Positions 2,203-64,000 of a stretch of 64,000 bases of DNA are shown here, piece by piece. Below the pieces are notes generated by a model, which saw only the letters and a program-made list of their open reading frames with translations, was not told the DNA's origin and ran no database searches. Numbering within the stretch: the first letter of the stretch is position 1; the number at the start of each line of letters is the position of its first letter. The translations under genes were made by a program, and so were the position numbers. Where the stretch lies: positions 713,308-777,307 of the forward strand of contig NW_020194684.1 of assembly GCF_002865645.1 (NCBI RefSeq), in the 5' to 3' direction. This DNA comes from Hyaloscypha bicolor E. Lineage: Eukaryota > Ascomycota > Leotiomycetes > Helotiales > Hyaloscyphaceae.

Positions 2203-3813
2203 TTCTATCCCCAAGCTCTAACTCGAAGTCTATCTAATTCCTCTAAAGTAATACCAGAAGTTATAAAAGATAATTCATATAATATAATTTTATAACCCAA
2301 AACCAGACCTATATTACTAGAGCTATTAGCTACTGAAATAAGAGGCATTTATACTAGATTTATAATAGTTAAGGCCAAATATATTAAAAAGAATTAGAGG
2401 CTATTAGCCTTACTTACTCAAGTAAAGCTTAATAATTAGTAATAGTAAGCTTTAATTATTCTCTACTATACTCTTTTATATAAGTACTACGATTTCCTAT
2501 TCGTATTATAATATCCGTCTATAGATCTAGCTCTATAATAGTTTATATTAGAGGATAATATACTAACTAGAATATAGCTTTATAATATTTATATCTTCCT
2601 TGAAATCTTATAGTATTATCTACCTACTTCTTTGGATTTTATACTAGACTTTCTTTATCTATTATATTTAATAATAGTATTACTTTATAAGATAATACTA
2701 ATATTTGCAGATATTTGAATTAAATATCTAGGAGAGATAAGTTAGTATAGAATAGCTCTTAAATATAAAGATATTTAAAACTAAGAAATCTGGATATCTA
2801 ATACTTGTAACTAGTATTCTAAGATATCTAATAAAACTCCGACTATTAGTAGATTCTACTACTACTATATACTTCTTATAACTAATACCCTTTAAGAATT
2901 ATTCTTATATAGTAAGTTCCTTTATATTATAAATTCTTTTAACTCAGTTCGAATATTAATCTTAATATTATTTGATCTAGTCCTAATTCTTATAGGGAAA
3001 TACTAATACAAGTTACCTATTTTAGATATCCATTTTATAAAAATATATAGGCTATTATTTAAGCAGATAAAAGAAAGGTTTAATAGGGAAATAATATAAT
3101 TTTTATATCTTCTAAATCTCTAGATTAAAAGAACTACTTCCAGCTTTATAGAATAAGGATATCTAATTACTATTTCTAATATTTATATAATATTCGATTT
3201 TGGATTAAAGAATAATATTTTAATTAAAGCTATTAAGGGAATACTAATAATAATTACAGATAAGAAGACAAATACTTCATTTAAATACTTATAGTATCTT
3301 TACTATAAGATACTAGTAGTTATTCTTAAATAAGCCAGAGATCTAAAAGTTTTGCCTTTTCTTTATATTATTCTTGCTTTTATATATTATATATTTTATT
3401 CTCTATATATAATAGACCTTTAGGAAGCTAGATTACCTTGGGTTTAGTTAATAATAATATTAAATACCTTAATTAATTATTTCTCGAAACGGGTTAAATA
3501 TAACAAGTTCCCAAAGCCTATAGAAAATAACTAGTATCTATTTTCTGAAGATTATATAATATATAGACTATTATAGACCAGAGACTATTTCCCCAAATAC
3601 TGGTTTATAAAAGAGGTTAAAGATAATAAGAAGTCTTTCGAAAAAGCATTAATAATTCCTTAAAGAAAAGAATAAATTCTTTGGCTTATATACTATATTA
3701 CTAATTATAGTAATTTACTAATTTATTAGAATAGTACTATATATATGTTTTTAGTAGAGTATACTAATAAAGTAGTAGGTAAAGAAGCTTACTAGAGAAG
3801 AGTCAGATAATGA
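2203..3813 (+). pseudogene. EST1-type (telomerase-activating / SMG7-like) protein, RIP-degraded
   Basis: A single frame from 2203 to about 3810 reads, after discounting RIP changes, like the fungal EST1-like family: a 14-3-3/TPR-like N-terminal half, then the EST1 DNA/RNA-binding region. Visible pieces are IKYLGEIS and KTPTISRFYY (2730-2870, normally 'IE-LGD-' and 'APT-GRLYHHL'), LILFDLVL (near 2975), YLITISNIYIIF (near 3160), then FSEDYIIYRLL and DYFPKYWF (3545-3610) and KE*ILWL (near 3670), typical of the C-terminal part of that domain. Stops fall at expected Gln/Trp codons. Relatives act in telomerase recruitment or nonsense-mediated decay, but amplified fungal copies are of unknown role. 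No ATG survives at the 5' end, and the 3' limit is uncertain (TAA-TGA at 3808-3813). Confidence 0.72.
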
Positions 3814-5091
3814 AATAATAAAAGAAATTAGTAGTAAGAACTATAAGATATATAATACTATATATAGAATAATTAATTCAGATATAGAAAAGGGCCAGAA
3901 TAAAGAATTATATTTCCGGAAAAAATTACTAGTAAGTTATTTATATATTAATAGACTATAATAGTAAGAGGAGCGGCTTTATATATGGAACTATCTGTAT
4001 TAAGAAGAGCTATAGGCTATAATAAAATAGTTTATAAAAAATAGAAAATACTAGAAGTTTAATATATAATTTCTGAATTATTATTAAGTTATTAAAAAAT
4101 ACTTCTTTAAGCTATATTATATTTGCTATATTTTTTTTAATAAACTATTACTTATAAAAGCTCTTTATCTTAAGGCTTTACTTCTCGAGTTTTATTTACT
4201 AGAATAGTAAGTAATTATTGAAATAATAATACTTTAGTAAGTTTACTCTTCTAAGATTTATTTATTCCATACTATTATATTCCTCTTTATTATAGATTAA
4301 CTTTAAGCTTTCTAGAAATTGCTTCCTCTACTAGTATTAACGAGTTTATCTAAGTTAGTATTACTGAAATATCTTTTCCGGATTTCAGATATACTATTAT
4401 AGCCCTTTAAAACAGAATAGGATATATAAGGATATCTGAATATAACTAACTAGGCCTATAAGCTCCTTCTTTTATAATAAGTTATCTAAGAAAGTATACT
4501 AGAGAGATTAGAATATATAGAAAGTAAGAATTCAAATAACTTACTAATAGAAGTTCTTTAGCCGAACTCGATACTATTAAATACAAAAACTTATCTGCTT
4601 ATTAAGATTACTTATCGGGATATTCCAAGGCTAGTCTTCTATAGGAGTAGCTGCCCTGCTCTATAAATTAGAGTATTATAAAGCCTAATATTTCGGTATC
4701 TTTATATAGCCCGTAACTTTATAGACTAATATTAATATAGCTTTCAGGATTGGCTTAGATAACAGATTAATAAAATAAGCAGTCCTTAGGCCGAGGCCTT
4801 ACCGATTTTAATATCTTTATAAAGAGACAGGAATATAGTAGAATATATAATATCTCTATATATTATATCTCGAGAGGCAAGAAATTTAAGTCCCGTTAGT
4901 ACCTACTACTTTAATATTAAAGCCCAAAGAGTTTTAATAGTAATAGTTTACCTTATATATAATTATTACTACCTGAATCTCGTTTAGTAATATAGTAGAT
5001 TTATTAAGATCCGTTAGAGAGATGGCTATATATTCGAAAATAGTAAAAATAGTATTACTATATATAAATATTTTATAGCTAGTAAGGAAAT
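3814..5091. other. Unresolved RIP-degraded sequence
   Basis: Very AT-rich with stops in all six frames. It could hold the C-terminal part of the EST1-like gene and the 5' part of the relic that follows. Fragments such as KYFFKLYYICYIFF near 4100 look hydrophobic, but base bias alone yields Ile/Tyr/Leu/Phe here, so membrane segments cannot be claimed. No repeat or RNA gene seen. Confidence 0.3.
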
Positions 5092-6000
5092 TCTTATCTC
5101 TAACTTAACGGAGGGTTTAAGCTTGGTTATTAACCTCTAAACCAGCTATATATTTTATTATAAAAAGCTCAAATATAGCTGGGTTCTTATATATAACAAT
5201 TACTAATACCTCTAATTTATAGTAATATATCTTGGTATAATATTACTAAGGTAATACTCTTTTTAGAGGCAATAAATTATATAGTAGTAACTCTTCTGGG
5301 CTATATATTTCTTATAGTATAAAAAGAGATTCGGGTATATTAAGCTTAAATAATAGTTGAGATAAGAATATATTATAGATAACCTTACTAATATTATTAT
5401 TTAGGTCAGATTACTTTTTATACTATATCCTCTTCTATTATATAGGGCTTTAAGGGTTATTATATTAGTTCCTCTTTAGTAATATAATAGCCTAAAGGGT
5501 TATATTTCTTTACTTCTCTAGCCGAATTTTGTCCGGAAACTATATTATAATCGAGTCTAATCTCTCTAGTTAATATATTATACTTGTTATAATATATAAA
5601 AAGGAAATAAAGTTAATTATAAAAGGTATAAAAGCAGGCTATTAGTTTAAGGCTTTTATAAACCAGAGTCGGCTTAAGGAGTTTAAAAGCCCTTAAGGTT
5701 ATTTCGGAAAGAATCTCGACTTTTTATAATTAAATATAAATAGATAGCAGTTCTTACTATATAAGGAAAATAGAACGGCAGAAATTGAAGTTATTACCTG
5801 AGAAAAGAGAAAAAACTCTATTATCTAATTACTTATACCGAAACTAGAGCCGCTTAAAAAGATAAAACAGAAGACTGGAAATGGCACTTATATTAATAAT
5901 AATTCTAGCTAAGGGTATTAAGAATATTACCAGATACTTTTCTAATACTAGGTAGTAGAAAATAAATATCCAAAACAGAACCCAGAAGCCAAAATTATAT
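5092..6000 (+). pseudogene. Unidentified coding relic upstream of DUF3723
   Basis: One frame stays coherent for about 300 codons with stops mostly where Gln or Trp codons would be. It contains SGLYISYSIKRDSG (near 5310), hydrophobic stretches, then a charged C-terminal part with TAEIEVIT (near 5775) and PKLEPLKKIKQKTGNGTY (near 5840) and ends near PKQNPEAK. I do not recognise the family. The change from a hydrophobic to a charged, lysine-rich tail with normal-looking codon order argues for a former gene rather than noise. It lies 130 bases before the DUF3723 relic on the same strand and could belong to the same transferred segment. Confidence 0.35.
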
Positions 6001-6129
6001 AACTGCCTCTCTAATACTATAAAGGCAGTAAAACTAGATATATTTACTAGTTTAAAGTCTATTCTATATCTCTTTCTCTTCTTTATTTACTGCCTACTTT
6101 ATTCTTCACTCTCTCTATTATCTATATTA

Positions 6130-8690
6130 AAATAATAAATATATAATATAATATCTAGTATTATACTATTAAGCTAGAAAGAAAGCTTATTAAAGATTAA
6201 AAAGAGAATTTTCGAGAAACGGCTTATATTAGTCTAAAAAGGCTTAATTTTAAGCCCGAATACTCGAGAGATATTAATAGAAAGAATATTAAAAAGCTAA
6301 AGAGAATTTTTATAAGATAAGGCTATTTTCGGCTATTACTATCTAATTATATACTAGTAATTATTACTAAATAAGACCTGAAAGTTATATTCTAATATTT
6401 AGGTAAAATACTTAAAGATCTTCTTAATAGTATATAAGATATATCTCTTAAGCTAATATTATTTCCAAATTATATACCCAAGTACTTTTATAGCTAATAT
6501 CGGATTCTAGCTACTCTGGAAATCTTAATACTAAAAGAAGAATAATAGATAGTAGATTTATATCTATTAGGTTCGACCTTAAAACCCTTTATAGTTATTT
6601 TAGAATATCTAATATTATTCCTATCTAGTAATAAGTCTAGAGGCCAAAACTGCCTTAAATAAAAAGTATTTTAACTTATTTAATTTTACTAATAGTAAAA
6701 TCTATAGAAAGATCCGAGACTACTAATAGCAAAACAAGCCCTTTACTATAAGGCAGTAGCAGGTATACTTATCTAAAGGCAAGCAGAAAGATCTAGGCCA
6801 GCTTCTAATAAGGGAAAGATATAAGGAGGCTTTTAATACCTTACTAGCTATTTATAGTCTCTAGGCAGGACCAGGATTCTTATTTAGTAATATATAGGAA
6901 GTTCTAGCTATATAATTTAATAATATCTACTAGGTAATTCCTATTATAATTATCTAGACTAATCTTTTAAATAGAAGGTTTTATATTATCTTAACTATAT
7001 CTAGTAGATATAATCTTTTATTCTAGGCAGAAATACGGATCTTATATATAAAACCGACCGATTTATTATTGAAACTTTATAACTAAAAGCTCTATAAGTA
7101 TTAGGAAATAACTTAAGCCAGCTTAAAATACTTTTCGATTTAGGTAAACTTTTTCCCAAAATAAAATAAAAAAAAGAATAGAGGTTAATCTGAAATAATA
7201 TTCCAAAAATAGCTTATCTTATTCCCTTACTATATATACTCTTTAAAGACCTGAAATTACTAAGCCTATATATAAAAATTATTTAAGCTTTAATTAAGTA
7301 GCCTTTTAAGGAATTATTATATAATATAATAGAATAGTAGTTCTCTAGTATAAACCAGACTCCTGGTATAATTATTATATAAGATACTAAAACGGTATTT
7401 AATATATATAAAAGAAGTATAATAGATTAGATCGAATTCGGCTACTAGTAGTTCTATCTCTTTATACTATAATATTTTCCCCGAATAATTAGAGAATATC
7501 CGAAAAAGGAAAAGAATTAGCCTAAGCTAACTATTAAAGAGCCTAATTCCGTAACTTAATACCGGTTTGCCTTCTTGGCTAATTAACTAAACTTTAATTC
7601 GGAAGTTATTAGGTAGCTAAAGGCTAATAATCCATATAAAGTCAAGGCTTATAACTTTCTCCTAAAATATAACTCTCCTGAATTATATACCTATAATTAG
7701 TAGCTCTTTAAGGAATATATAAAATAGATAGCAAGAATATATATAGTAGTTATTAAAAAGAACTAATAATATATTAAGCTTCTAGTAATAGTAAATGGAA
7801 CCGGTAAACCCTTTCTATAATAATATAGTTAGTTCTTTTAGACTACTTATAAATATAAGCAGAACTACTTCTTTTTAGATATTCTCTATAATACTACTAA
7901 TATAAAAGAGAAAGAAATTATATTATTTTTTATTTAGAGGTTAATATACTTTATATTCTTTAGTAAACGCCTATCTAATACTATAGCTAAGGCTCTATAA
8001 GGGCTACTATCTCGAAATACGGAAATTAATATAACTATAGAAAGTAATAGGGTATTTCCCTATAATACCGAGTCCGGATTAGTACTACCCCAAGCCTTAG
8101 TAGCCGAGCCTTTAGTACAGAAATAAATATAGAGAGATTACCTAATACTCCTGCCTTTATTAAGCCAGAAATAGATAGTACTAATCCCTGCTTTATAAGC
8201 TAGTAAGAATTTATTAAACCAGAAATAGATAGTACTAGTACCTATTTTGCAAGCTAGTAAGAATATATATATTTATCTCTATTCTCTAGATTATACTTTT
8301 CGGAAACTAAAAAATAATATAAGTTATTATATATCTTAATAAAAAAGATATAGATCTCCCTAGATACCAAATAGTTTTCCAGGTATATTAGAAGAGAGGC
8401 TTCCAAGACTAGAAGTACTCTATATTATATAGTAACCCTTTTAAGATAAAGCAAATAGCTACTAAGTATATTCGAAAAAACATATATTTAATAATAATAA
8501 GAGGCTATAGCCTTATTCTAGAGAGGTACTATAATACGGTAATTAGTAATAGTATATATATTATAGTACTAGTACTAAGAGAAAAAAGGAAGATTAATAA
8601 ATTACTAATTACTTCTGGAATAAGATCTATTATAAAAAATAAGCCCTAATTTATAATACCCGAGCTAAAAAAAAAAAAATTTATAGAAAG
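6130..8690 (+). pseudogene. DUF3723 family protein, RIP-degraded
   Basis: The N-terminal signature is plain: AYISLKRLNFKPEYSRDI (6214-6267, normally 'AYISLKRL-F-PEYSREID'), KNIKKLKRIF (the 'KNVE-L-RIF' helix), LLSNYIL with LLNSI*DIS, then IVDLYL (near 6555, 'WWTVDLYL') and KIYRKIRDY (6697-6723, 'GEIYRKIRQY'). C-terminal marks are LFKDLKLL (near 7240), LANQLNF (near 7570) and I*RLIYFIFFSKR (near 7940, 'FVRRSVY-AFFG'), then SGIRSIIKNK near 8640. Register changes occur between blocks, so some indels or introns exist. The function is unknown; the family is repeatedly found in Starship giant transposons and other accessory regions of Pezizomycotina. Length (~800 codons) suits the family. The start is approximate: no ATG survives. 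Confidence 0.78.
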
Positions 8691-8740
8691 ATAATTTACT
8701 TATTTTATAATTAGAATACAAAATTATACTAGTATTAATT

Positions 8741-9040
8741 CTCGTATTACCTATAACTCTTATACTAGTATATAAGCTTATAGGAGCTCAAAGTCTCATA
8801 TAAACCTATATACTTTTACTAGCCCGTATATTTCTACTAGTCTTAATTCTTATACTAGCCTGGATTCTCGTACTACCTATAACTCTTATACTAATATATA
8901 AGCTTATAGGAGTTCAAAGTCTCATATAAGCCTATATATTCCTACTAGCTTATATACTTCTACTAGCCTTAATTCTTATATTAGCCTGGATTCTTATATT
9001 ACTTATAACTTTTATACTAGTATATAAACTTATACTAGCC
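8741..9040 (+). repeat. 126-bp (42-codon) tandem repeat, 2.3 copies
   Basis: Units start at 8741, 8867 and 8993. Copies share CTCGTATTACCTATAACTCT, AAGCTTATAGGAG and CAAAGTCTCATATAA blocks and differ almost only by T/C or A/G. The period is an exact multiple of three, and one forward frame reads as a Ser/Thr/Tyr-rich repeat (TYNSYTSI, SSKSHI, TSLNSYTSLDS). It lies just after the DUF3723 relic and may be its low-complexity C-terminal tail or a separate surface-type repeat protein. Confidence 0.75.
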
Positions 9041-12000
9041 TATATATTATTAATAAATCTTTATTAGTTCTTATAAATCAAGAGCTAAGTCGCAATTATA
9101 ATATTAATATAGATATCTAATAAATACTTCTCTTTCTTATATATTAAAGCTTAGTTTCGTTTTACTATAACTATATTAGTTAAGAGTATATAATTAGTTT
9201 ACTAAGCGGCCAAAGTTACTATCCGGAACCTCAATTAATAACTATCTCAATTATTTTCTTTAGAACTAATCTTACTATTACTAATATATATTTTATTTTA
9301 AAAAGGATAATAGGTAAAATAAAAATAAGAAATTATTATTAGTTTACTATTAGAAATCCTTATTAACCGAGGGCTAGTTATACTTTAGAGATACCTTATA
9401 ATTGCCCAAGAAATCCGCTCTTATTCTAGTAATATATAAAGTAACTAGGTAGTATTTTTACTATAATAAGACCTTTATATAATAGAGACAGATTCCAAAT
9501 CCAGTCCTATAAACCCAGATATTAAGCTAGTTATAATTAATATTAAGATATAGATTCGTATTCTCTATATAGTATATAAATATAGCCTTATTATTCCTAA
9601 CCTTAATAGCTAACTATTTCTATTATAGAAAGTTACTTTCTTTCTAGAAATAGGTAAAATAATAGAAAAAATTAAATAAATAATAACTGAACTTATAGCC
9701 TTTTATAATAAAGGCAACTCCCTTCCTATAACTTGCCTGCCAGTTTTTATAGTAACTATAATTCTTTTAAAGCTCTTATTAAAGGCTATAATAGTATAGG
9801 TATATTCTAAATATACTAGTCCGGATTAGAAATATCTCTTAATTATACCTGGAGATATTATTATTACTTATATAACTATCTAGTTATAAATATAATAGAC
9901 TAAAGTTAGATCCGCTATTTATATAGATAATTTTATTATTTATAGGAGTTAGTATAGTTTATATTCTCGAAATATATAATATATTTCTTATACTAGGGAC
10001 TTGTATTTATAAGCAAATATATAAATATTCTAGATTTCATATATAAATAAGTAAATAAGTAAATTTATTCTATATTATACTATTCTATTAAGTTCTAATT
10101 ACCTATATAGCCTATTAGAATTATAATAGGTGAAATAGTAACTTCTTTAAGTAAATATCCTTATTTAATATCTGCCTTATAATCTCTCGGACCTATTCTC
10201 CTATATAATTATTTATATATACTATTAAGTCATTAGTTAATAGGTATAGTATCTATTTATTACTAGACTTATATGAGATTATATTTTGATCCTTTCTTTC
10301 TTTAATTTCAGATCTAATTAGATTCTTAATATTAAGGCCTTAATAATAGTAATTTACTATAATATAGTTATATTTACTAACTTGACTAACTATACTATAT
10401 TCCGTACTATTAGTAATATAATTCCCGGTAATAAAGAGATATATATTAAGAACTTATTAGAAATATAGATTAGAAATACTCTAATAGGTTACCTTAATTA
10501 AACTTATATATTTAGAATCTTATTTAAATAAGTTAGTTATTTATTATTCTATCTATTTCAAGTATTTTTCGGGGTAGTTATTAGTAAAGATTCTCCTGGA
10601 ATTAACTAAGGCCTATCTTTAGAATTCATTTACTAAAATAATATAATTCTCCTCACTTTTATATTATAATTATAAAAATTCTCGAGAACCTACTTTATAT
10701 AAGGTAACTGGCTAGCTATACTAATATCCGTTATAAATAATAAGACTATTTTATACTTATTAAGATATATCTTCTTATTATAAGATCCTTTAATAATAGC
10801 TCTTAATTTAATAAATTAGAATAAGCTATTATTACTAGAAAGACTTTATATAAATCCCGTCTGCTATTAAATAATAAAGATAATAATATCCTAATCTTTA
10901 TTATATAAATACTACTATATAACTATATTCGGATATAATTAAAAGAAAGTACTATAGCTTGTTCCTGGAATATAAAGATATATATATTAGTCTACTTAAT
11001 ATATCTAGAGCCTCGAGATCTTAATATAGACCTAATAAACATTCGGTAAGGATTTAATAGAGACTTTATATAAGTATTTCCAATTATAAAGGTTCTAATA
11101 GAGTATCTAATAAGTCCGGAGAAAATATAAAGATACTTATATATAATATATAATAAGGAAATATATTATTAGTATACTAAATAGCCTTTCCGGAATATGA
11201 ATCCAAATAGCGGTTATAATAATTATTACTAGAATCCGATAGATATTTAAGAAGATCTTATAGAAATAATATTATATAATTAAAAATAAAGTAATTAGAA
11301 TAGTAGCTATAGTAGAGGCAGTCTGGTTTATTTAGTTAGTAGTTCTCGTTTCGAGAGGGGAACTTACTACTAATACTACTATTTGAGTTAACGAATATAG
11401 ATTAGGTATCTATAATACTATAATAAGAATTATATGAATTACTTCCTTAATTATAGCTACCTGCCCTATCTAATAATAGATAATATTATAAGCCTTATAT
11501 CCAAGTCTATAGCTACTAATAATAGAGTTTATATAACTTCTGAGAATAAGAAAAATAAGATTTACTATAGATAATAGTTCTATTTACTATAAGGCCTTTA
11601 TATAATTATTTATAAGGCAAATAATATTACTTATAAGGAAAATAATAACTAAGAATATATAATATCGAATAGTACTACTTATATACTTATAGACCTATAA
11701 ATAGAAGATATATTTAAGAAAATAGTATATTATATAGATATATAAAAAGCTAATAGAAATTCCCAATATATAGAAAATAATTAAAAGAATAGTAATAGCT
11801 ACAAGTACTATAGTATACTATTAAATAATATCTATATCCTAGAGAGTCTTAATAAGATTAATATAATATAAAACCCGGATATATAATATAGGAGAAATAA
11901 TATAGGCCCTAATAAATTAGCTTATAGAAAGGTATTTAAATTAGAAGCCAAAAGTTACTATAGTATTTAGTATACTTTATATCTTAGTTATATAAGATAT

Positions 12001-52014: not shown

Positions 52015-55000
52015 CCTAATAGGATATAAGGCTTATTTTATTAAGATAATATTAGAAGAAGCCTGAATTATATATACTTTATTAGAAAGAGTTAATTTAA
52101 TAATAACTAGTTTTTATAGGTAATTATATATTTATATCTACTTTCTATTATTTTATTTAGGTAATAAATATATATATAGTATCTTTACTACCTTTAGGGT
52201 ACTATTATTTCTTACTATTATACTAATATATACCTATATTATCTATATAAGCCTTTTTAGGCCTTAATAGGTTTAGTAACTATCTCGAGTTTTCTTATTA
52301 TAAATAATAAAAGAGACATATTTCTATTCTATTTATTTCAAGTATTAGTATTATAATCAAATATATCCGGAATTAAATCTATAATTTAATAGTATTATTT
52401 AAGAACAAAACTTACTCTATAGGATATCCGTATAACTTATATCTATTCTTAGTTATATTATTTCCGTATAATATTATTCTGTTCTATAGTTCATTACTTA
52501 ATAGTTTAATCTAGTTATAGCTTTTAGTAGCTTACTTCTAACCCGGATGAAATTAGTTATTAGATATATAGAATAAAAAAGAGGCTGGCTTATAAAGTTA
52601 CTAGAATATAGATATAATAGATTCTATTCTATATACTTTAGAGCTCCAAAAGCTTCTTTATTGGATCTCAGCTATTATACTTTCTATAAGGCTTATAAGA
52701 AGATCTTAATATAATAATAAATAGATATAGTAATATATTTCTTACTTCTATTAAAAAACATCTTAACTAAAGCTTAAGAATAAAAAAGAACTTTATAATA
52801 TAAGAGTATAGTCCTTAGTATTTATAGCTAAATATTAAGTTATCCTTTATAGTTATCTTAATAAGAACCGATTTAGAAACTGTAAATATAATAAGGTTTT
52901 CCTTATTCTACTAATAGTATACTAATTAAGAGAATTAATATTAATAATTAACTCTATATTTATATATACTTACTACTTTTAGAAATAGTAAGATATCCGA
53001 ATTATAATTCTTTAGCTTATAAATAGTTCAAATAACTAGTTCTAGTAATACTACCAGGTTATTTTGTCTTATAGATATAAAAGAGGAGCCTCAAATTAGA
53101 GTTTAATTTCTATAGATCTTCTATTTGCTCTTTGACTTATCTTAAAAATATTTCTTTATAGCTAGGCAGGAATTAAGTAATTAGTTCAGATTAAACAAAT
53201 TTGAAGTTTGGAAGTAGTAGAAGAAAGGTAATAGTTTAGTATTTGAATCTAATAAAAAATCTCAATTAAATATAAAGTTCTCTTATATTCTAATATATAA
53301 TTATATTTATAAAATAATATAATAGTTCCAACTTGTAGTTACTTAAGGCTATAGGAGCAGTTTCAGGAGCTTATTTCTATAATAGACCGAATTCGAGGCA
53401 AGTAATATTAGCGGATCCGGAGAGAATTACAGACTACTATAATAGCTAGTACTACTAAAAGCAAGTAAAACTAGATACTATTATATTATATAGTCTTTAA
53501 ATAAATTATTCTATTACTCTTCCAAATATATCTATAAAATTAATAAGGCTACTTTACTATTAATAATAGTTCTTTTAATTTCTTTTTAATATTATACTAA
53601 TAAGTATAAGTAAGGTATTCCTGTATTTTGGAGTTCTTATATTGCTAAAGTTTACTATATTTTGAATTAGATTATTATAGATTTAATATAAATAATCTTA
53701 AGGTATAGTAGTATTATAAAGTAGTAGACATTTATAATTACTTAACGGAAAATAAAGTTATTATAGAACTAATAATAGTAGTTTTAATTATATAATTAAA
53801 TCTACTAGATTTGAATCTATAAAATTATTATAAGTAGTATTAGTAATTGGGTATACTTATTTAACTAATAGATCCTATTAGTAGTTTAATAGTAAAACAT
53901 TACTATAAGGTTAAATATAATATATAATTTAATATATAGTTATATTTATTTAATTACTATTATACTATTTAACTTTAATTCATCTTTATAATAGTATATA
54001 ATTTATAAAATAAAAGAATATTATAAGCTATTTCAATTACCGAATTAATTATCTTTTATAGCTTTAGTAAAATACCTCGATATATTAAAATCCTAACTAT
54101 TATTATTATCTTAACTTTTATTTACTAAGTAAATATATGAAATTAATCTTAATAAAGATACGGCTTTACTTAAGAAAACATACTATAATTAATTAGGATT
54201 TACCTAAGGTTATATTACGAGACTCACCTGAATATACTATTCTAGTAAATCTAATAAAGGAAATAAGGAGAACTCGAGAGCTTCTTTAGACTATCTCTTA
54301 TTACTTAATAAACCATATAATATAAGAACTTCTAGTATCCGTATTAGAAATACCAAATTATACTAATAGTCTGTAATATATTCCTCTAGCAGACTTTAAT
54401 AGTAGTTATTAGGAACTAGAGAGTTAGCCCGAATAGATAATAATAGGTTAGTTATACCAAGTTTAATATCCCTTTTTAATAATAACCTTATACTATTAAT
54501 ATAAAGCCTATAAGCCGGTATAATATCTAGTAGGTAAGTTATTACTTTAATTATCTATATAGTTTTAGCCTTATATAGTATAAGGCAACTTAAAGAGTTT
54601 TATTTCTCTAATAATTATTATAATCTCTCACTCTTCCGAAGCTAACCTTTTAAACTCTAGGTTAAATATTAAAACATTTATATACTTACTAATAACCTAT
54701 AGCTTATTATTATAGTAATATATATTAAGGATATTAGTAATATTTGGATATTAAATTTAAGTAAATACCTTAAGTATTTATAGTAGTATTAGTAAGAATA
54801 ACTCGCAGATAATAGTAAAATAGAAATAACTTTTCTGATAGTATATAAATATATCCTGGTTTAAATAAATTTTATAGATAAATATATAATCTTTTTTCGG
54901 ATCCTTAAACTCAATTCTTAGTAAATATCTAAATTTCTATTATCTAATAGTTACTATAGGTACTAACTTGGAGTCTAATAGACTACTAAAATAAAAGAGT

Positions 55001-55119
55001 TCTACTTTTTTTACTAATAAAGTATTCTAGAGGCCTATATTAATCTAATAAGCTATTAGAAAATAGTTAGTAAATTAGCTAAGAGAAATTAACTTCTAAA
55101 ATTCAATTTATTAATTCTA
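52015..55119. other. Unresolved RIP-degraded sequence
   Basis: No nameable gene. A forward register near 54200-54640 (RDSPEYTILVNLIKEIRRT, LADFNSSY*ELES, SFISLIIIIISHSSEANLLNS) looks like a gene remnant. Near 53160-53260 KFEVWK-like charged text appears. No element ends, RNA genes or long repeats seen. Confidence 0.25.
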
Positions 55120-56480
55120 AACTATAAGTATCTCTTCTAAGAAGCTCAATTTTTGGCTACTAAGATAATACGGAACCAGATTAAGCTATTAGTTAGCTAG
55201 CCTCTTATATAAATCTATAGTAAATAAAATCCAGATTCCGTATCTAAAAGATTATTTATAATAGATCCGATACCTAATATAATTCCTGAAAGCAAAAAGA
55301 TATTTATAATAGACTAGAGATCTTACTCGATTCTACTACCTAACCTTTACCTGACTTCAAGTATCTATAGTAATAATATATCTATAATAACCGGTCTGGT
55401 TTATAAAGTCTCGGAAGAAATAAGAATATAAGAATACTATATAATTATATATTATATAAGAGAGAATTAGGTACTTAAAGATAAGATTATACTTTACTAG
55501 ATAGTATAAACTAGAATAATTATACTAGTAAATAAAGTTATATAAGCCATTACGATTATTGAAAAGAGTTTTATTATAGTTAATATAAGTATAGCAAATA
55601 TAGAAAAAGACTAGTTAGTATTCTAGGGTATTTATAAAGAGTCTCTAGGTTTATACTTATTCTAGCTCTAAATATTACTTATTATAAATTCACTAAATAT
55701 ATTATAATCTATATAGTTTAGATTTATATATAAATCCGGAGCTTATAAAGATAATTAGATATATAAGAGTTATAGGATAGGCAGAGTAATATTTAGTATT
55801 TAGCTATATTAGTTCTAAGAATAAAAGGCTATCTATTATTAAGATATATATTAGCTAAAGAATAAAGAATTAGAAGGCTATTATTAGAACAGGTATTAAA
55901 TAAAGAGTAAAGAGTTAGAAGAGAATTATAGCTGGAATAAAGAGCTATTTAATAGTTATAATACTTCTTTAAGAATTCTTCTATTAAAAATCTCAAACCG
56001 GTCTATTCTTTCTATATTTCTAATAAGTATTCTAGATCAAATTATTAATAGAAGTTCTTTTAAAAGGAAGTTAAGTATATGTCTTGGTTTCTTCTAAACT
56101 ATTTTTGAAATTAGTAATTATCTAATAAAAGTTTGAAAAATATATATATAGTCTATATATTATTAAGTCTACTTTTAGAATTAGCTATTATTTACTAATA
56201 GTAAAATACTTATACTATAAGTATATTATTTATTCGCTTTTTTAATTTATTATAGTATCGAAAAAGTACTACTAATTCGGAAGAATTCGGGAAAGGGGTT
56301 TACTAATAAATCTAGAAATAGATCAGAAATAGATATTAGAGAATAGGGTACTAAGCTTATATAGGATACTAAAGTCCGGCTATTTACTAAGGCTAGATAT
56401 CCTCTAAGTAGTTACTTTCGGATTCCCATTATTTATATTAATAAAAAGCTATAAAATCGGAGGTTTTATTAAAGTTTAAT
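55120..56480 (+). pseudogene. Unidentified coding relic, ~450 codons
   Basis: A single register holds from 55120 to about 56480: NYKYLF*EAQFLATKIIRNQ, RLFIIDPIPNIIPESKKIFI (55246-55305), RSYSILLPNLYLTSSIYSNN, ITGLVYKVSEEIRI*EYY (near 55390), LKDKIILY, ITIIEKSFIIVNISIANIEKD (55549-55611), GIYKESLGLYLF*L, KSGAYKDN*IYKSYRIGRVIF (55732-55794), KNKELEGYY*NRY*IKSKELEENYSWNKELF, FEISNYLIKV and SGKGFTNKSRNRSE (56287-56328). Charged and hydrophobic residues alternate as in a folded protein and stops are of the RIP type. I do not recognise the family. The Lys/Glu-rich KELE repeats near 55870-55950 suggest a helical hinge. Confidence 0.42.
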
Positions 56481-56689
56481 ATATTATCTAAGAGAAAGAT
56501 ATAGTAGATTATAAAATAGTACTATTTTTATCTTATATAATAGCTAGTACCCGAATAGTAATTATATATAGAATCTATAATCCTCTATCTAAATTCATTT
56601 AGGGGTTATAAATAAGGAATATATATAGATTTTTCTTTTCTAAGAAATTAGTACTAAAAAGCTAATAGGGCTAAAAAGTAATACTAGTA

Positions 56690-56850
56690 ATAAATAATAC
56701 CGGTATATAATTAGATATAGGAACTAAAAGATACCGGTATATAAAGAAATATAGATACTAAAAGATACTAGTAAAGATACTAGTAAAGAGATATAGGTAA
56801 TAAAAGATAATACTAGTATATAAAAAATATAGGTACTAAAAGAAATAGTT
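56690..56850. repeat. Degenerate short tandem repeat (agatactagtaaa type)
   Basis: Variants of ATAGGTACTAAAAGATACYGGTATATAAA recur about five times (ACTAAAAGATAC, AAGATACTAGT, AATACTAGTATATAAA). The forward frame reads as RYRYIKKYRYQK-like basic repeats; coding status unsure. Confidence 0.45.
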
Positions 56851-57339
56851 AGTATCCTAGAAGAAATCTCAGCCGATCTTTTTTAAGTAATAAGTATTAC
56901 TAATAATATAATATCTAAATATTATTTATTATTAATTCCAAATATTACTATTATTAATAAGAAATACTAGAATTAGTATCTCTAGTATAGAAATATATAT
57001 ATTACGAATACTTATTAGCTGCAATTATAGACCTTATTTAGAGATATTAGATATAGTTAGAATTATAGCTATAAATAGCCTTAAAAATTATTTTTATAAT
57101 ATCTTATTTAATTACTATATTATTTAAGGCTTGTATTATAGCCTCGAAATTCTATAGTAAAGATTACTACCTATAATAGATCTCTATATTATTAAACCGA
57201 TTATATTATTCCTAGAAATATTAAGTATAAATAGTATTTTATTATTGTTTTTAGAACTAGAAGTTAGAGTTTTCTATATATTTCCCAAAACTTAAGTTAA
57301 TCTAATTTACTCAGGTTATTATACTATATCCTAAGGTTT

Positions 57340-58020
57340 AGCCTTTAGCTCTATATCTCGATATTATAAATGAAAAGCTTTATAAACTCCGTAAAAAGCT
57401 CGATTAATTAGAGATTAGGTAATTCAAATAGCAAATATAATACTAGGCCAAGATATAGAGAAGTTAAACCTTCTAATAAGGTTTTAAAGTTTAATAATAG
57501 AAGTATATATCTATATCTAAAGAATATAACTATAAAATGGCTATACTTTAATAGAACCTTAAACTTACCGAAAAACTTATATTAACCCAGAAAAAGATAA
57601 TAGATACTTAAGGTTAATAATAGTAATCTAAAAGCTATTCTATTCCGGTAAGTCTATTACTATCCAATTATAATAACTAAAATTAGTTCTATCTACCCTA
57701 CTAGTTCTACTATTAATTATTATATAACTATAATTTCATTATAGATTCTACTAGTCTTTACTAGATTAATAACTATAACTATAATATTGGGACCTCTATA
57801 AATAGTTCCTATAATCTATAGCTAGTAATATCTAATCCGGTCCTTAAGTTTAACTAATAGATATCTAACTTATTTATATTATTTATATTATATCCTATAT
57901 TTACTAAGCGGGATATTCCGGTTCCTACTAATATTAGTAAAGGTATAAAGAGGGCCTTAAAGAATAAGGAAATAAAGTCTAATAAAAAGTAGAGAATAAA
58001 ATAATTACTATTATAAAATA
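57340..58020 (+). pseudogene. Glutamine-rich coiled-coil protein with basic patch, RIP-degraded
   Basis: The register from 57357 reads LDIINEKLYKLRKKLD*LEIR*, a leucine-heptad helix, then many clustered stops (*F**QI*Y*AKI*RS*) interpreted as RIP-hit Gln/Arg codons, SISKEYNYKMAIL**NLKLTEKLILTQKKIIDT* (near 57515-57610), SKSYSIPVSLLLSNYNN, IGTSINSSYNL*LVISNPVLKFN, and YPIFTKRDIPVPTNISKGIK followed by RALKNKEIKSNKK*RIK (57955-58000), a basic cluster like a bipartite nuclear signal. The stop density is high only in the Gln-rich part, as expected if CAA/CAG were converted. The family is not recognised; possibly a nuclear protein. Confidence 0.42.
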
Positions 58021-58989
58021 GATATAATTCCTATTTATTATAGTATAAGATTTCTTTTAGATACTATATATTTCTTCTATATATTAGTTTTATAATTTAA
58101 GTTTTATTTCTTTAATAGTAATATATATAATAGTAAATAACTTATATAGTAATATAGTAATATATATAGTAATTACTAGCCAGATATACTTTAAGTCTAT
58201 CTATAGGAAAACCAGTTCTAATAGAGTTCTATAAACTTCCTTTTCTAATACCTATTTTCTATCGTTTCTCCTATATTATTTCACTTATAAATATATTAGT
58301 ACCGAACTTACTATATCCGGTAGATTATCTCTATTATAGATAGCTTTTATTACTCTAGTTATTTATAATAAACCAAGCTATATACCAAGGCCTCTATAGA
58401 TAGATTATCTTAATTCAATCCAGTTAATAGGATTATTAACCTTTATTATAATTTGACTATAGTAATAGAAATAATCCCTTAATAACTATAAGAATCTAAG
58501 TAATACCTAATTCCTAGTTTATAAAAAAGAATTATATAATTATAGAAAAAAAACAGTAGCCTTAACTATAAGATAGTATATTACTAAGATATAGAATAAT
58601 ATTAGAAAAAATTTCGAGATAATATAATATAATTAAAGAATAACTTTAAAAAAGCTATATTAAAATTAGATAGAACCTAGTAAAAAGTTTATTCTAAATA
58701 GATTTAATTAAGGTAAAGAAGTAAAGCAAATATTTAGAATAATTTTCAAATTCATCTGGTAGTTTAAGGCTTTAAGAAGCTTTAGAAATAGAAAATTTAT
58801 AATATATAATACCAAATTACTTATAAGTAGTCTCGGATAATATAGTATAATAGATTCTTTAAAATTCACTTAATAAGAAAATATATTTAATTAATACCCG
58901 AATTTTAATATAATAATTTATTTATTAATAACCCCGATTAAAAAAGTTTACTAAAACGGCTATTAAGATACCGAAGAGTACTAGTAAGG
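58021..58989. other. Unresolved RIP-degraded sequence
   Basis: No nameable gene. Forward text such as IYKASIDRLS*FNPVNRIINL near 58400 and FRDNIIQLKNNFKKAILKLD near 58615 suggests coding remnants leading into the tandem array, but register changes prevent a call. Confidence 0.28.
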
Positions 58990-59780
58990 TTTATTAGCTT
59001 GAGGTAAGCGGCTACTATAGAACTAGCTATTTACTAAAAAGGTAATAGATATAGTATCTTAAACAGGATATAAAAGTATATTAGCAGAAATGGCTCTTTA
59101 TTAGTAGAGATATAGTAGTAAAACTAGCTATATAGGGGATAATATAAAAGTATAATAGCAGAAATAGAAGAGAATATAAAAGTATAATACAAGAAACGGC
59201 TTTTTAGAAAAAGGTAATATAATAGATATAGTTCTCTAGAAAAGAATATAAAAATATAGTATAAGAACTAGCTACTTAATAAAAGAGGATATAAGAATTA
59301 GATATAAGAAATAACTATTTCGAAAAAAGGTATAGTAGTAGATATAGTCTCTAGAAGAGAATTAAAAGATATAAAACAAGAAATAGCTGCTTTTTTAGAA
59401 GAGAATATAAAAGTATACTATAAGAACTTACTACTTGAAAGAAAGATAAGATAGCAGATATAGTATTTCAGAAAAGGATACAAATATATAAAGCAAGAAG
59501 TAATTACTTAATAAAAGAGGATATAAAGATATAGAATAAAAAACAGCTTTTTGGAAGAAAGATATAATAGCTAATATAACTTCTTTAAAAGAAGTTATAA
59601 AGGTATAGTATAAGAAACGGCTACTTAATAAAGAAAATATAAAGATATAGAGTAAGAAACGGCTTCTTGAAAGAAAGATATAATAGCTAATATAATTCCC
59701 CTAAAAGAAGTTACAAAAATATAGTATAAGAAACGGCTTCTTGGAAGAAAGAAGTATAGTAATAGAAATAGTTATTTTTA
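58990..59780 (+). repeat. Tandem array of ~37-38-bp units, about 20 copies, inverse of 25140-25652
   Basis: Degenerate units of two alternating types: GAAAGAAAGGTATAATAGCTAATATAG and AAGAGGATATAAAGATATAG followed by AGTAAGAAACGGCTTCTT. The forward frame gives runs like KKGIVVDIVSRRE, LKDIKQEIAAFLEE and short K-G-Y-K motifs, so the array may have coded a repeat protein with 12-13-residue units. The same units, in the opposite orientation, form 25140-25652. Flanks of the two arrays do not match. Confidence 0.65.
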
Positions 59781-60113
59781 ATAGAAGGAGTAACCTGAGA
59801 TCTGGAGAGTTATTTCTGAATTATTTAATAAAGCAAGTATTTACTAGAGCTTAATAATATTAATAAGAGTATCCCAGATATATTAGAAATGGGTTTTTTG
59901 AAATAATATTTATAATATAGAAATTCAGGAAATAGCTTATTATTTTTAGTAGCCGAATATACTAGTTAGAAAAAGTTAGGAAATTGCTTTTACTATTTTT
60001 ATTCTCAAGAGAGAAAGAAATATATATTAAAATAATAATTACTATTTAGAAATATATATCTTTTTGCCTTTATTATTATATTATTATATTACTAAAACTA
60101 GACCAAAATAACT
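59781..60113. other. Spacer between tandem array and MADS-like relic
   Basis: A forward register (EGVT*DLESYF*II**SKYLLELNN) continues out of the array for about 100 bases and may be the C-terminus of the repeat protein. The rest shows nothing supportable. Confidence 0.3.
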
Positions 60114-60476
60114 ATAGCCAAGAAATATAAAAAATACTAAGAGAAGTTTAGAAAGAGAACTAGAAGCCTCTTTAATAAGGTAAAAAAGCTAGTACTAGAT
60201 ACTAATACTTTTATTACTCTTATTATTTATAATAGAGCTAATAGAATCCGGTTCTTTAAATTATTAAATAGCCTTTATTAGCCCTATTTAATTATAGATC
60301 TTATTATAAATAGTAAGATATCTTAATATATATAATACTTTATACTAACTAATAACTAAAAGAGAAATACCTTTTAGATACTTATAAATACCTTTAGAAG
60401 TATATTATTTCCGGCTACTAGAAAGAAATAGAAAACGAGAATAGTTCGGCTCTAATAGTTAAGAATAGGGAATTAG
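60114..60476 (+). pseudogene. Short MADS-box (SRF-type)-like protein, RIP-degraded
   Basis: The likely start is ATA at 60114 (ATA GCC AAG, originally ATG). The sequence AKKYKKY*EKFRKRTRSLF, then NKVKKLVLDTNTFITLIIYN and RANRIRFF, follows the MADS-box layout: a basic N-terminal helix with 'KRxxxLFxKxxEL', an Asp-containing turn ('DTD-F') and a hydrophobic strand 'ALII-N---R-R-F'. It continues LLNSLY*PYLIIDLI and ends about 121 codons from the start, typical of the short MADS-like proteins found in multiple copies in some Pezizomycotina. These are presumed DNA-binding factors. Only a handful of stops occur. I rate this plausible, not proven. Confidence 0.45.
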
Positions 60477-60515
60477 CTATAAAAAATATTCGAGTAATAA
60501 GGGTAGCCTCTATAA

Positions 60516-61106
60516 AAAAAACAGACTAGATTAGATAATACTTTAATAGTTAATATATACTATATAAATAAGGAAGTTGAGATCCGTATAAATATACCAA
60601 AAAATAAAGTAATTAAGAGAGTTAAATCGAGAGAGACTATAGTTAATATATCTAATAATATAGTAGCTAATATATCTGGGAAGTCGGGTAATTCAGTAAT
60701 TACTATACTTTATAAATCGGATTACTTAATATTTAAGTAATTGGATTATATAAAAGTCGATTTACTTAGTAATTTATATAATAGAATATTTAATATAGAT
60801 AGGAAACTAGATGAAATAATAGCAGAACTTGGGAAATCTAATAATATAATAGTTAATACTATTAGAGAATTAAATAATAAAATACTAGATATACTTATAG
60901 AAGCGGATAAAGTAATAGATATACTTAGGGAGTTAGTAGCTATTAATATATATAATATAGCTAAAATAGATCCTATAACCTTTAATTATAATATAATGGA
61001 TTTAGATATAGTAGAGGGAAAAAATAATATAGAAATTAATAGGATTGAAATATTCGGGAGAGGTAACTTAATAGAAGCAGCTATTACTCTTTCTATACTA
61101 AGCTAA
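60516..61106 (+). pseudogene. Nearly open frame, Ile/Asp/Glu-rich helical protein, one stop
   Basis: One register is open from 60516 to 61106 apart from a single TAA at 60738-60740 (likely a former CAA); TAA ends it after SILS. Residues after the break include LLSNLYNRIFNIDRKLDEII, NTIRELNNKILDILIEADK, VIDILRELVAINIYNIAKID, DLDIVEGKNNIEINRIEIFG. Heptad-like Ile/Leu spacing suggests helices. Without ATG it could start at TTG 60741 or further upstream; neither is supported by a start context. I do not recognise it, and its alternating Asp/Val-Ile pattern could also be the shadow of a gene on the other strand. Confidence 0.35.
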
Positions 61107-62257
61107 TATAATATTCCTCTATTCTTTAATAATCCTGGCAGTTGGCAGGTAATTAATTAGCTAAGGATACTGCTTCCAAATAGTCAAGAAGATTAGGGAA
61201 TAGCTAAATTAAAGCTTTTAATAAGAATAGATTAAAAGAAGCTACTTAATAGATAGGATTGGGTTTTTTTAGAAGAAATAGATATTATTATATAGATAGT
61301 AGAGCTTCTGGTAATACTATAATTATTAGGGTCTATATATAGATGCAGTTAGTACTAGAATTAGCTCTTTACTAGGATAAATAAACTCAATTTCTTCTTA
61401 GCTTCTAATTATTAAACGTTTATTTATATCCTGATTTTATTATTATAATATTAATACTCTTGAAATAAGGTTAAGGTATAGAGTTCAGACACCTTATATA
61501 ACTAATATAACTATAATATAAGAGGTATAGTAATATAATAGTCCGGTTTTAGATTAATTTTCTAAAGATATATAACTAATAAATATAACTATTACTTCTA
61601 ATATAGTTTTCAATCCAGTATAATATCTCGGTAGTAATAGATATAAAAGGTATTTAAGCTACTAGAATTACTGAAAATTATAGTAATCCCAATTATATTA
61701 TAAATTCATTTATATTACTCTATTTATTTTACTATATAAAGATTGGCTATTAGGCTACTATTTACTTTATCTGGCTATTAGACTCAATATCTTAATTAAT
61801 TATATTCCTAGCTATAATTATTATACTTTTTATAATATTCCCCTTTTTTTATATAATTATTTATATTTTCTTTACTAAGCCTTTTTCGAATCCTATCTTT
61901 ATTATATATCTCTATTCCAGGTAGGCCCTTATCTCTTTTATAATAACTCTTTACTAATATAGTTCTCTTAGCTTACTATTTGTAATCCTTTAGTATAAAC
62001 CTATATAAGATAGAAAGAATTATATTCTTCTATTTAAATTAGTTATAACCTTTAATCTTCTTATATTTCTTATCTTTCTTCTCTAAAAACAAATCTATTA
62101 CTAGTATAGTATTCCTATATTAGATATTAAATAAGGGAATCTCAAGATAGCAAATATTAATAATGTTTTAATAAGGCTTATAGCTAGAGACAATAGGCAA
62201 ATCAAGTATTATAACCCTATTACTATACTAGAGACTTGCTAACTCTAGATAATACAG
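61107..62257. other. Unresolved stretch with a probable 3' splice site
   Basis: No gene recognised. At 62234-62257 CTTGCTAACTCTAGATAATACAG has a branch-point (GCTAAC) and acceptor (ACAG) arrangement and precedes the long frame at 62258, so part of this stretch may be intron or an upstream exon of that gene. C/T-rich words occur near 61835-61960. Confidence 0.35.
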
Positions 62258-64000
62258 GGGTTAGGTTATAATATTAATACTATTAATTATTCTGGGAGCA
62301 ATTATTAAAGTATTATTAGCAGGTCCGGCTAGCTAATTAATAGTAGAGGGCTTAATAAAAGGTTAGATAATAGTAAAGCTAGAGGATTAGTATAAGAAGA
62401 GATAAGTAAAGCAAACAAGCGGTTTACTAGTACTAGAGTAACTGGACTACTATAAGGCAGAGTTAAGGGCTAAGGAGAGATAAAGGAAGATTAGTAAGAA
62501 AGTATAAGTACTAGTATTTTTCGTACTAGCTCTAAATTTAAGAATATCTATTTACTACCTGCTATTATTACCTCTAGTAATATATATCCTGCTTTAAGAT
62601 TACTATTTAATAATACTTCTTAACCTGAATCTTATAATAGCTTCCGAGCTATAATACTTGAATAAAATTAGTTTTAAGGGAATTATTTTTTATTTTATTT
62701 TATTTATTTCATTTAATATTTTTTCCTATTATTCTTTAATAATTTCTCGATTTTATATTTAAAGCTATATTATAAAAACTAATATAGGAAGTAACTCGCT
62801 TAATTACTACTATTTAATTCTAAAAGACCTTAATTACTTTAAATAAGGCTTAATCCCAACTAGTAATAATACTTGTTCTAACTAATCCAGAAAAAGTAAT
62901 CTGCTTTTCTTATCCTATAAGTTCTCGGCTAATAGCTCTATATACCTAAGGTATACTAGTAGTAGAGGAAGTTTAACTAGTAGACTTATATAAGGCTATT
63001 TCTATTTATATATATAATTATAGTAATAGTAGTAAATCTCGAAGATTATAATTACTAGAAGGAGCTAATAATACTCCTCGAGCTTTTTCTTTCTAATATA
63101 CCTATAATAGATACCTTAAAATAGAGGAGGCTTTCTAGAAGGATATCTTAAATAATATATAGAAGACCTTAGTCTTTAATAGATATAATATATATGTTTT
63201 ACTAGCTTTAGGCTATTTATAGACCTAGTATTCTATAGTAGCTCCCGATATTCCTATTTCTACTTTTATAATATTAAAATTTTTATAGAACTTGAAATTA
63301 ATTATATAATTTTACTATTTTTTAGAAATGAAATACTATTATTAAATAGGGAAGATATATTATAAATAGCTCTGGTTTATAGGTTATACTATAAGTTAAT
63401 CTTAATTAGCTAAGTTCAAAATAGTTTAAATATAAAACAGATATAATTCCCGATATCTAAAGCTATTTACTAAAGCTATACTTTTTATTATAAGTTTTAT
63501 TTTATCTTCTATATTTCTTAATATATAATATTATAAATATACCTAGTAGCTTGACTTAGCTATAAATAACAGGAATATTTTCCTTTAGAATACTAATAGA
63601 CTTTATATTCTTCTAGAGAATTTTCCAGATTCCTATAAATAGAACCCAAGTCTTCTTATATTTATTAAAAATAAATCTAAAGCTATAGCTATAAAAGAGC
63701 TTATAAAGACATTTTCTTTATTACCGAAATACGGCTATAACCCTAACTACTAATTCCAGTATAATAATAAATCCAGTTCGAGAGGCTAGATAAACTTAAA
63801 TAGTAGATATATATATAGGAAGATATATCTCTATATCTATATTTCAAATACCTTTAGTAATAAACCCATACTACTTATTAAGGGAGACCTACCTATCCTG
63901 AATAAACCAGGAAGAATACTAGCTACCGAGAAATATTATAAGACCTCGAGCCAGTAGCTTAATATAAGGGCCTTAACTATTTCTATCTTATTAGAATCCG
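62258..64000 (+). pseudogene. Long Ser/Thr/Pro/Gln-rich (disordered) protein relic, runs off the window
   Basis: A single register (codons starting at multiples of three) holds from about 62280 to the last base, at least 570 codons. It begins LAGPAS*LIVEGLIKG, then a charged segment LDYYKAELRAKER*RKISKKV (62445-62507), followed by residues expected from RIP of a Pro/Thr/Ser-rich chain (many Leu/Ile/Tyr/Phe), NNTCSN*SRKSN, FSANSSIYLRYTSSRGSLTSR (near 62920-62980), a cluster of stops near 63015-63030 that was probably a glutamine run, TRRS**YSSSFFFL, NRGGFLEGYLK, RNEILLLNRED and finally RPTYPE*TRKNTSYREIL*DLEPVA*. The family is not recognised. Frame consistency over 1.7 kb is the main evidence. 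The 3' end lies beyond the window. Confidence 0.45.

What the first reader, a model, noticed from the sequence alone, without database searches (positions are those of the whole stretch)
2203..64000. Graveyard of non-transposon gene families rather than of retroelements
Relics read as EST1-like, DUF3723, 2EXR, APH-like, Dcr2-like, Clr5 and MADS-like. RIP normally hits repeats, so these genes must have been in duplicated segments. No reverse transcriptase or integrase is readable. A large duplicated accessory block, possibly decayed Starship cargo, would explain it.
Basis: inference. Interest (0 to 1): 0.8.

Follow-up and report, generated by a model that had tools for sequence, protein, structure and literature searches.

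The report
RIP-mutated duplicate of Starship-like cargo
This stretch of a fungal genome is a graveyard of ordinary genes wrecked by the fungus's anti-duplication mutation system (RIP): much of it is a mutated copy of an intact gene block on another contig, about 71-93 kb from a gene of the kind that drives giant "Starship" transposons.

Summary
Window 2203-64000 is 23% GC with strong RIP indices; no reverse transcriptase or integrase was detected. Four of the seven named families are supported: DUF3723 directly (E 7e-40); Dcr2-like, Clr5-type and MADS-like through intact homologues. EST1, 2EXR and APH were not recovered.

C51:2106001-2128372 is an intact copy (GC 48%, normal indices) of window 23258-24237, 31350-52281 and 60795-61576. 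Between them are 5,361 C-to-T/G-to-A changes in the window's direction, 112 reversed transitions and 236 transversions; 86% of CpA and 77% of CpG sites are hit. About 85% of the region has a match elsewhere in the genome.

The intact copy lies 71-93 kb from an intact DUF3435 captain-like gene with a defined 5' end, in an interval with DUF3723, NACHT and (below cut-off) patatin/RING genes. Window 4355-12260 matches captain-flanking DNA. So this is most likely derelict Starship-type cargo, but a rearranged mosaic of several ages. No captain, terminus or target-site duplication was found in the window. Derelict RIPped Starships are known; the one-sided RIP is the interesting part.

The parts
137..2193 (.). 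Tc1/mariner-like DNA transposon (outside the stated range), inserted in repeat X
   Evidence: Imperfect TIRs; 32 related places listed; X is uninterrupted at C53, C49, C71 and C1. Superfamily named by eye, not by a Pfam hit (the attempt failed)
2195..4354 (.). Repeat X, right part (continues at 1-136); five other places, two of them partial; no Pfam match
4355..12260 (.). Block A1: captain-proximal cargo, in several AT-rich copies (C53 89%, C71 83-84%, C62 73-76%, pieces at C76 and C50)
   Evidence: the 12260 end continues into captain-flanking DNA at C71 and C62
6631..7964 (+). DUF3723 relic (6631-6867 and 6972-7964), 36 stops
   Evidence: PF12520 E 6.8e-40 and 1.2e-7; genome scan; stop-free relative at C51:2060617-2062105
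15161..25327 (.). Block A2: repeated in AT-rich pieces at C1:303-384 kb and C50:1185-1219 kb
15478..17424 (-). Relic of an unnamed 670-aa protein, intact relative at C51:2169148-2171157
   Evidence: tblastn 45%, E 4.6e-148; no Pfam match; 5 homologues among 7,998 scored candidates
21567..22848 (+). Relic of a related unnamed protein, intact relative at C51:2211004-2212311
   Evidence: tblastn E 8.7e-79 and 4.7e-16
23258..24237 (.). Block B, left end: copy of C51:2127518-2128372 (reverse), RIP-type differences apart from a 125-base insertion
   Evidence: by eye the match runs on to about 24258
24238..31349 (.). 7.1-kb insertion that splits a glycosyltransferase-2 ORF that is continuous in C51
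31350..52281 (.). Block B: RIP-saturated copy of intact C51:2106861-2127502 (reverse); 44912-45711 does not match
31355..32131 (+). Glycosyltransferase family 2 relic
   Evidence: PF13641 E 9.7e-31 in the C51 ORF
37678..38130 (-). GNAT acetyltransferase relic
   Evidence: PF00583 E 1.1e-4, above cut-off, in the C51 ORF
46742..48604 (+). Dcr2-like calcineurin-type phosphoesterase relic
   Evidence: PF00149 E 2.1e-9 in the C51 ORF
48697..52163 (.). 3.47-kb segment inverted relative to C51:2106979-2110455
50596..52011 (+). Clr5-type TPR protein relic (472 codons)
   Evidence: E 3.6e-136; some relatives named Clr5 domain-containing; TPR_12 only below cut-off
54120..64000 (.). Block C: older, diverged homologue of C51:2078.8-2086.6 kb, with gaps
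   Evidence: RY matching; 5.9% transversions over the 868 bases aligned near 63.1-64 kb
59979..60441 (+). MADS-like relic
   Evidence: tblastn E 2.5e-22 to C51:2081090-2081605, SRF-TF E 2.8e-7
60795..61576 (+). RIP-only copy of C51:2106001-2106786, displaced into block C
63448..63999 (+). Relic of the ORF next to the patatin/RING-like ORF of C51 (that they form one gene is an inference)
   Evidence: tblastn E 4.9e-43 to C51:2078083-2079447, an ORF without Pfam match; the adjoining ORF has RING E 2.4e-5 and patatin E 2.9e-4, both below cut-off

Best explanation
The window is a derelict, rearranged mosaic of cargo from Starship-type giant elements, in a genome whose captain gene is closest, among named relatives, to those of Leotiomycetes. 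Shown: two or more loci carry the same accessory DNA; the window's copies were RIP-mutated, block B to near saturation; the C51 copy of the same DNA is intact; and that copy lies in an interval with an intact captain-like gene and genes often reported from Starships. Inferred: captain-driven copying, or cargo exchange between elements, made the duplicates; RIP destroyed the extra copy before meiosis; an outcross, or later arrival of the C51 element, kept one unmutated copy; and once the copies fell to about 74% identity RIP no longer paired them, so the intact one stayed safe. The window's element lost its captain and was broken up by inversion and insertion.
For: RIP-type, one-way divergence from an intact collinear copy over 21,953 aligned bases. 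The intact copy has GC 0.478, TpA/ApT 0.75 and the other index 1.23. The C51 stretches at 2066-2075 kb and 2136-2146 kb are of normal GC and have only short or partial matches elsewhere (longest 1.2 kb at 65% and 0.96 kb at 80%). Intact DUF3435 at C51:2033550-2035070, DUF3723 at 2060617-2062105, NACHT at 2174103-2175971. A sharp 5' boundary, 410 bases upstream of the captain's likely start codon, shared with DUF3435 loci at C32 and C28 and with a captain-less end at C70:130618, the upstream DNA differing; two further, RIPped places match it. Block A copies next to DUF3435 relics at C71 and C62, with the captain's 3' flank collinear between C71 and C51. About 85% of the region has a match elsewhere.
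Against: No DUF3435 match, 5' terminus or target-site duplication in the window (the last was not searched for systematically). The DUF3435 relics beside block A rest on profile scores alone (E 7.6e-9 at C71, 2e-12 at C62): tblastn with the C51 captain ORFs did not hit the C71 relic at E 0.01, and the terminus was not among the best matches there. The 3' end of the C51 element was not found, so its unity over about 180 kb is assumed; 110 kb of it was read. Only 22 kb of the C51 interval is duplicated with RIP-type divergence. The kilobase just left of it (2105-2106 kb) is itself RIP-like (GC 0.39, indices 1.27 and 0.69). Block C and the C62 copy of block A differ by about 6% transversions, so not all copies come from one event. 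About 15% of the region has no detected match. Patatin and RING are below Pfam cut-offs. Lone DUF3435 genes also occur outside Starships (PMC12134995, passage).
Confidence: 0.7

Rival explanations
1. Ordinary segmental duplications of an accessory or subtelomeric gene region, hit by RIP, with DUF3435/DUF3723 genes merely frequent neighbours; no Starship moved the cargo.
For: Block B copies only an interior 22 kb of the C51 interval; no terminus or captain in the window; copies are cut at many different points.
Against: Captain, MADS-side DNA and block A lie together at C51, C71 and C62, with DUF3723 in the C71 and C62 copies; a shared terminus upstream of captains; a NACHT gene in the same interval.
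Confidence: 0.24
2. Two waves (overlaps the best explanation): the RIPped copies are old residents, and the C51 element arrived recently, by introgression or horizontal transfer, and has not met RIP.
For: Nearly all of the C51 stretch read is unmutated, including the duplicated part, whereas RIP normally mutates both copies (recalled); 0.56% transversions separate B from C51 over 9,128 bases; a metagenome protein is 92% identical to the captain over 87% of the query.
Against: No species tree or second isolate tested; outcross rescue gives the same pattern.
Confidence: 0.35
3. Decayed retrotransposon or LINE heterochromatin misread as genes.
For: The genome has many RT places (150 scored of 767 candidates).
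Against: None detected in the window, with the limits given in the observation check; an intact non-TE counterpart exists for block B.
Confidence: 0.02
4. AT-rich sequence from generic mutation bias, not RIP.
For: Low GC throughout.
Against: Context: CpA 86% and CpG 77% mutated against CpC 27% and CpT 20%, one-way.
Confidence: 0.01

Closest known systems
Derelict, RIP-mutated Starships (heavily RIPped elements in P. variotii IMV00236 and Spiromastigoides, PMC11623301; the GtA elements of Gaeumannomyces, PMC12134995 and PMC11905480; passages seen)
   Same: Giant-element cargo mutated by RIP; in PMC11623301 RIP is ascribed to a second copy in the genome, and duplication of a Starship is said to have led to RIP in an experiment
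   Different: Here the captain and ends are missing at the mutated site, the cargo is scrambled, and the intact partner of a 22-kb segment is in the same assembly
Limos in Fusarium falciforme versus Verticillium (PMC12257634, passages seen)
   Same: About 78% identity with a transition excess (813 transitions, 26 transversions at the 3' end; 511 and 45 at the 5' end)
   Different: There the two copies are in two species; here in one genome, over 22 kb
RIPped segmental duplications of Neurospora type (recalled)
   Same: Duplicated genes destroyed in CpA context
   Different: There both copies are usually mutated; here one is untouched, and CpG is nearly as heavily hit as CpA

Membership tests
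RIP-mutated duplicate | C-to-T/G-to-A transitions concentrated at CpA | tested here: met
   Block B: 2,463 of 2,862 CpA sites mutated; 5,361 forward against 112 reverse transitions and 236 transversions
RIP-mutated duplicate | A second copy in the genome | tested here: met
   About 52,723 of 61,798 bases have a match elsewhere, counting match extents
RIP-mutated duplicate | Both copies mutated | tested here: not met
   Block B: C51 copy unmutated. Block A: mutated on both sides. Both-sided RIP as the rule is recalled
Starship (C51 interval) | Captain: DUF3435 tyrosine recombinase, intact | tested here: met
   PF11917 in three stop-free ORFs, E 1.5e-11, 1.3e-26, 2.3e-30; Tyr of a YINE-type motif invariant among 10 aligned sequences (its catalytic role is recalled)
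Starship (C51 interval) | Captain is first gene at a defined 5' end | tested here: met
   Shared boundary at C51:2032522, C32:59704, C28:39477 (all with DUF3435) and C70:130618 (no DUF3435 listed), with dissimilar upstream DNA
Starship (C51 interval) | 3' end, TIR or target-site duplication | tested here: inconclusive
   The 33-base 5' pattern has no close inverted match in the C51 interval; the right end was not fetched
Starship (C51 interval) | Frequent accessory genes (DUF3723, patatin-like, NLR, ferric reductase) | tested here: met
   DUF3723 and NACHT found; patatin/RING below cut-off; ferric reductase not tested
Starship (C51 interval) | Presence/absence between isolates; empty site | not testable with these tools
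   The genome is held without relatives
Starship (window itself) | Captain or 5' terminus | tested here: not met
   No DUF3435 place in C70:713308-777307 among 62 matches; best terminus scores in the window 21.0 and 20.5, reversed-sequence control 21.0

The most novel reading that the evidence does not exclude
RIP here may act asymmetrically on shared cargo: a captain-bearing element keeps an untouched copy while copies at captain-less sites are driven to saturation (86% of CpA and 77% of CpG). Starship-type elements in such fungi might thus hold the protected reservoir of accessory genes while the rest of the genome fills with their RIPped shadows.
Probability: 0.1. Interest if true: 0.7.

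Novelty: new member of a known kind. Interest (0 to 1): 0.45.

Why it matters
It gives a within-genome pair, an intact gene block and its RIP-saturated copy, over 22 kb, which lets RIP's context preference, its limit and its one-sidedness be measured directly. It also shows that an AT-rich gene graveyard can be former giant-element cargo with few readable transposon genes of its own, which annotation by TE libraries might miss.

Tried and rejected
A coding frame could not be picked by low stop density: the DUF3723 frame has 32 stops in 331 codons, close to the 10.1% average over six frames. Rfam (gathering threshold) and tRNA scans of the window found nothing. A low-penalty blastn of L049 against the window gave dozens of matches, mostly of 56-65%, that I take for AT-composition noise; only the 84% match to 11547-12260 is used. 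The global alignment forces non-homologous stretches together (for instance window 44912-45711 against C51 about 2113338-2114014), so its 215 transversions in the largest block are inflated; the local figure is 0.56% over 9,128 bases. A BCS1-type AAA ORF exists at C51:2113452-2113895 but gave no tblastn match in the window. The first L044 search was swamped by a short repeat and was repeated without it. In the 85% coverage figure whole match and chain extents count as covered, small rows were left out, and gene-family and short-repeat matches are included. C51 at 2041-2066, 2146-2166, 2176-2206 kb and beyond 2216 kb was not read.
Full report
Setting. The window is C70:713308-777307 of an 82.0-Mb genome in 76 contigs. 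Most proteins close to its captain-like gene are unnamed metagenome entries; the nearest named ones come from Lachnellula, Rhynchosporium, Pseudogymnoascus and Cadophora (117 hits), so the host is probably a leotiomycete (inference; the taxonomy of these genera is recalled).

RIP. From 2203 to the end the DNA is 23% GC with RIP-like indices in every 1-kb bin. The 1-2200 part is less mutated (GC 0.37) and holds a Tc1/mariner-like element with imperfect inverted ends, inserted in a repeat, here called X, that is uninterrupted at C53, C49, C71 and C1.

The intact partner. Searching the genome with three 20-kb pieces (window 4001-64000) and with window 1-4400 found matches for most of it. The key one is C51. 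In a purine/pyrimidine alphabet, which ignores RIP transitions, window 31350-52281 runs along C51:2106861-2127502 in reverse, with one 3.47-kb segment inverted and one 0.8-kb stretch (44912-45711) that does not match; 23258-24237 matches the adjoining C51:2127518-2128372, and 60795-61576 matches C51:2106001-2106786. A reversed-sequence control gave one short chain. Over 21,953 aligned bases C51 differs from the window by 5,361 C-to-T or G-to-A changes (window mutated), 112 reverse transitions and 236 transversions. Mutated fractions by C51 context are CpA 2,463 of 2,862, CpG 1,609 of 2,096, CpC 698 of 2,598 and CpT 589 of 2,956 (summed). C51:2106001-2128372 has GC 0.478 and normal indices; the kilobase left of it, 2105-2106 kb, is RIP-like. 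Further C51 stretches (2066-2075 kb, 2136-2146 kb) have only short or partial matches elsewhere: the longest are 1.2 kb at 65% on C5 and 0.96 kb at 80% on C4, and whether those are RIPped was not tested. So in block B RIP is visible in one of the two copies only.

Relics. Mapping C51 ORFs to the window by tblastn and naming some of them with Pfam (10 ORFs each) identifies a glycosyltransferase-2, a GNAT acetyltransferase, a Dcr2-like phosphoesterase, a TPR protein related to Clr5-named proteins and a MADS-like gene. DUF3723 is found directly. The six-frame Pfam scan of 2195-31356 and 52165-64000 (9 calls) found nothing else, and no retroelement domain; heavy RIP lowers the power of that scan.

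Layers. Transversion rates separate the layers: block A against C53 0.24%, C1 0.60%, C50 0.76%, C71 1.02%, C62 6.1%; block B against C51 0.56% (9,128 bases); block C against C51 5.9% (868 bases). In block A both partners are mutated. A 7.1-kb insertion (24238-31349) splits the glycosyltransferase ORF, and its first kilobase also occurs, with the adjoining sequence, in the C1 and C50 copies, so the rearranged structure was itself duplicated. Together, about 52,723 of 61,798 bases (85%) have a match elsewhere, and 31,550 (51%) lie within chains to the C51 stretches read; the nine unmatched pieces of 300 bases or more are equally RIPped.

Starship evidence. A genome scan for DUF3435 scored 63 candidates and listed 62 matches, many of them exon pieces of one gene. 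One of the few genes free of stops lies at C51:2033550-2035070. Upstream of it is a boundary shared with DUF3435 loci at C32 and C28 and with C70:130618, where no DUF3435 gene is listed; beyond it the four sequences differ and are AT-rich in C51, C32 and C70. A 33-base degenerate pattern of this end matches five places exactly (C51, C32, C70 and, RIPped, C2 and C24) and C28 with two mismatches; the other 53 places have three mismatches and look mostly like an unrelated AT-rich repeat; the reversed control gives one. The same C51 interval holds stop-free DUF3723, a NACHT gene and a patatin/RING-like ORF below Pfam cut-offs. Block A of the window (4355-12260) continues at C71 into DNA collinear with the 3' flank of the C51 captain (68% over 1.1 kb), and DUF3435 relics lie 1.8 kb (C71) and about 8 kb (C62) beyond. 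Against this, the C51 captain ORFs did not hit the C71 relic by tblastn. The window itself has no DUF3435 match. Hill et al. name DUF3723, ferric reductase and patatin-like genes among those reported as prevalent in Starships, and note that lone DUF3435 genes exist and that captains can be lost (PMC12134995, passages).

Why one copy is intact. RIP is said to act in the pre-meiotic cell on repeats in CpA context (PMC12543289, passage) and in Neurospora usually hits both copies (recalled). An outcross can restore an unmutated original, and at 73-75% identity the pair would be below the limit at which RIP recognises duplicates (about 80%, recalled). Late arrival of the C51 element would give the same picture. 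The data do not decide between them.

Known or new. RIPped, derelict Starships are in print: heavily RIPped elements called derelict, with RIP explained by a second copy (PMC11623301, passages); element-wide or extensive RIP in Gaeumannomyces (PMC12134995, PMC11905480, passages); and a transition-dominated divergence in Limos (PMC12257634, passages). Among the titles and abstract starts listed by searches for a Helotiales or Leotiomycetes case, for derelict or degraded RIPped Starships and for duplications with RIP I saw none about an intact and RIP-saturated cargo pair in one genome; that is limited to this library and these terms. Gluck-Thaler et al. 2022 is not held and was not read. Verdict: a new member of a known kind, with an unusually clean intact partner.

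Noticed in passing
window 25069-25640 and 59019-59772: Two inverted copies of one minisatellite-like array 33 kb apart; relatives at C75, C21, C26, C1 and C70, some near matches to other block A pieces.
   Followed up: partly
window 38728-39182: A 450-base repeat with 18 listed places besides C51; also in the C51 copy at 2119726-2120174, so it was there before the duplication.
   Followed up: partly
window 46288-46434: A 147-base repeat with 26 listed places at 81-89%; no Rfam or tRNA match in the window.
   Followed up: no
window 12255-15160: Segment that looks inserted between blocks A1 and A2; short pieces of it recur at C26:1161-1168 kb and C70:2874-2881 kb.
   Followed up: no
window 4354/4355: Repeat X abuts block A1 exactly, while at C53 5.5 kb lie between them; the C71 copy shares the C53-type flank.
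   Followed up: partly
L047:3148-5157 (C51:2169148-2171157): Intact 670-aa protein without Pfam match and with only 5 homologues among 7,998 scored candidates, all unnamed; a RIPped relative lies in the window.
   Followed up: partly
L029:3405-4820 (C51:2108888-2110303): The Clr5-type TPR protein is 71-82% identical to proteins of Ilyonectria, Xylaria, Colletotrichum and Emmonsiellopsis over 71-74% of its length, high for such distant fungi; possible horizontal transfer.
   Followed up: no
window 44912-45711: About 0.8 kb replaces the stretch of C51 (about 2113338-2114014) that holds a BCS1-type AAA ORF.
   Followed up: no
C51:2105001-2106000: A RIP-like kilobase (GC 0.39) directly left of the duplicated, otherwise unmutated segment.
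   Followed up: no
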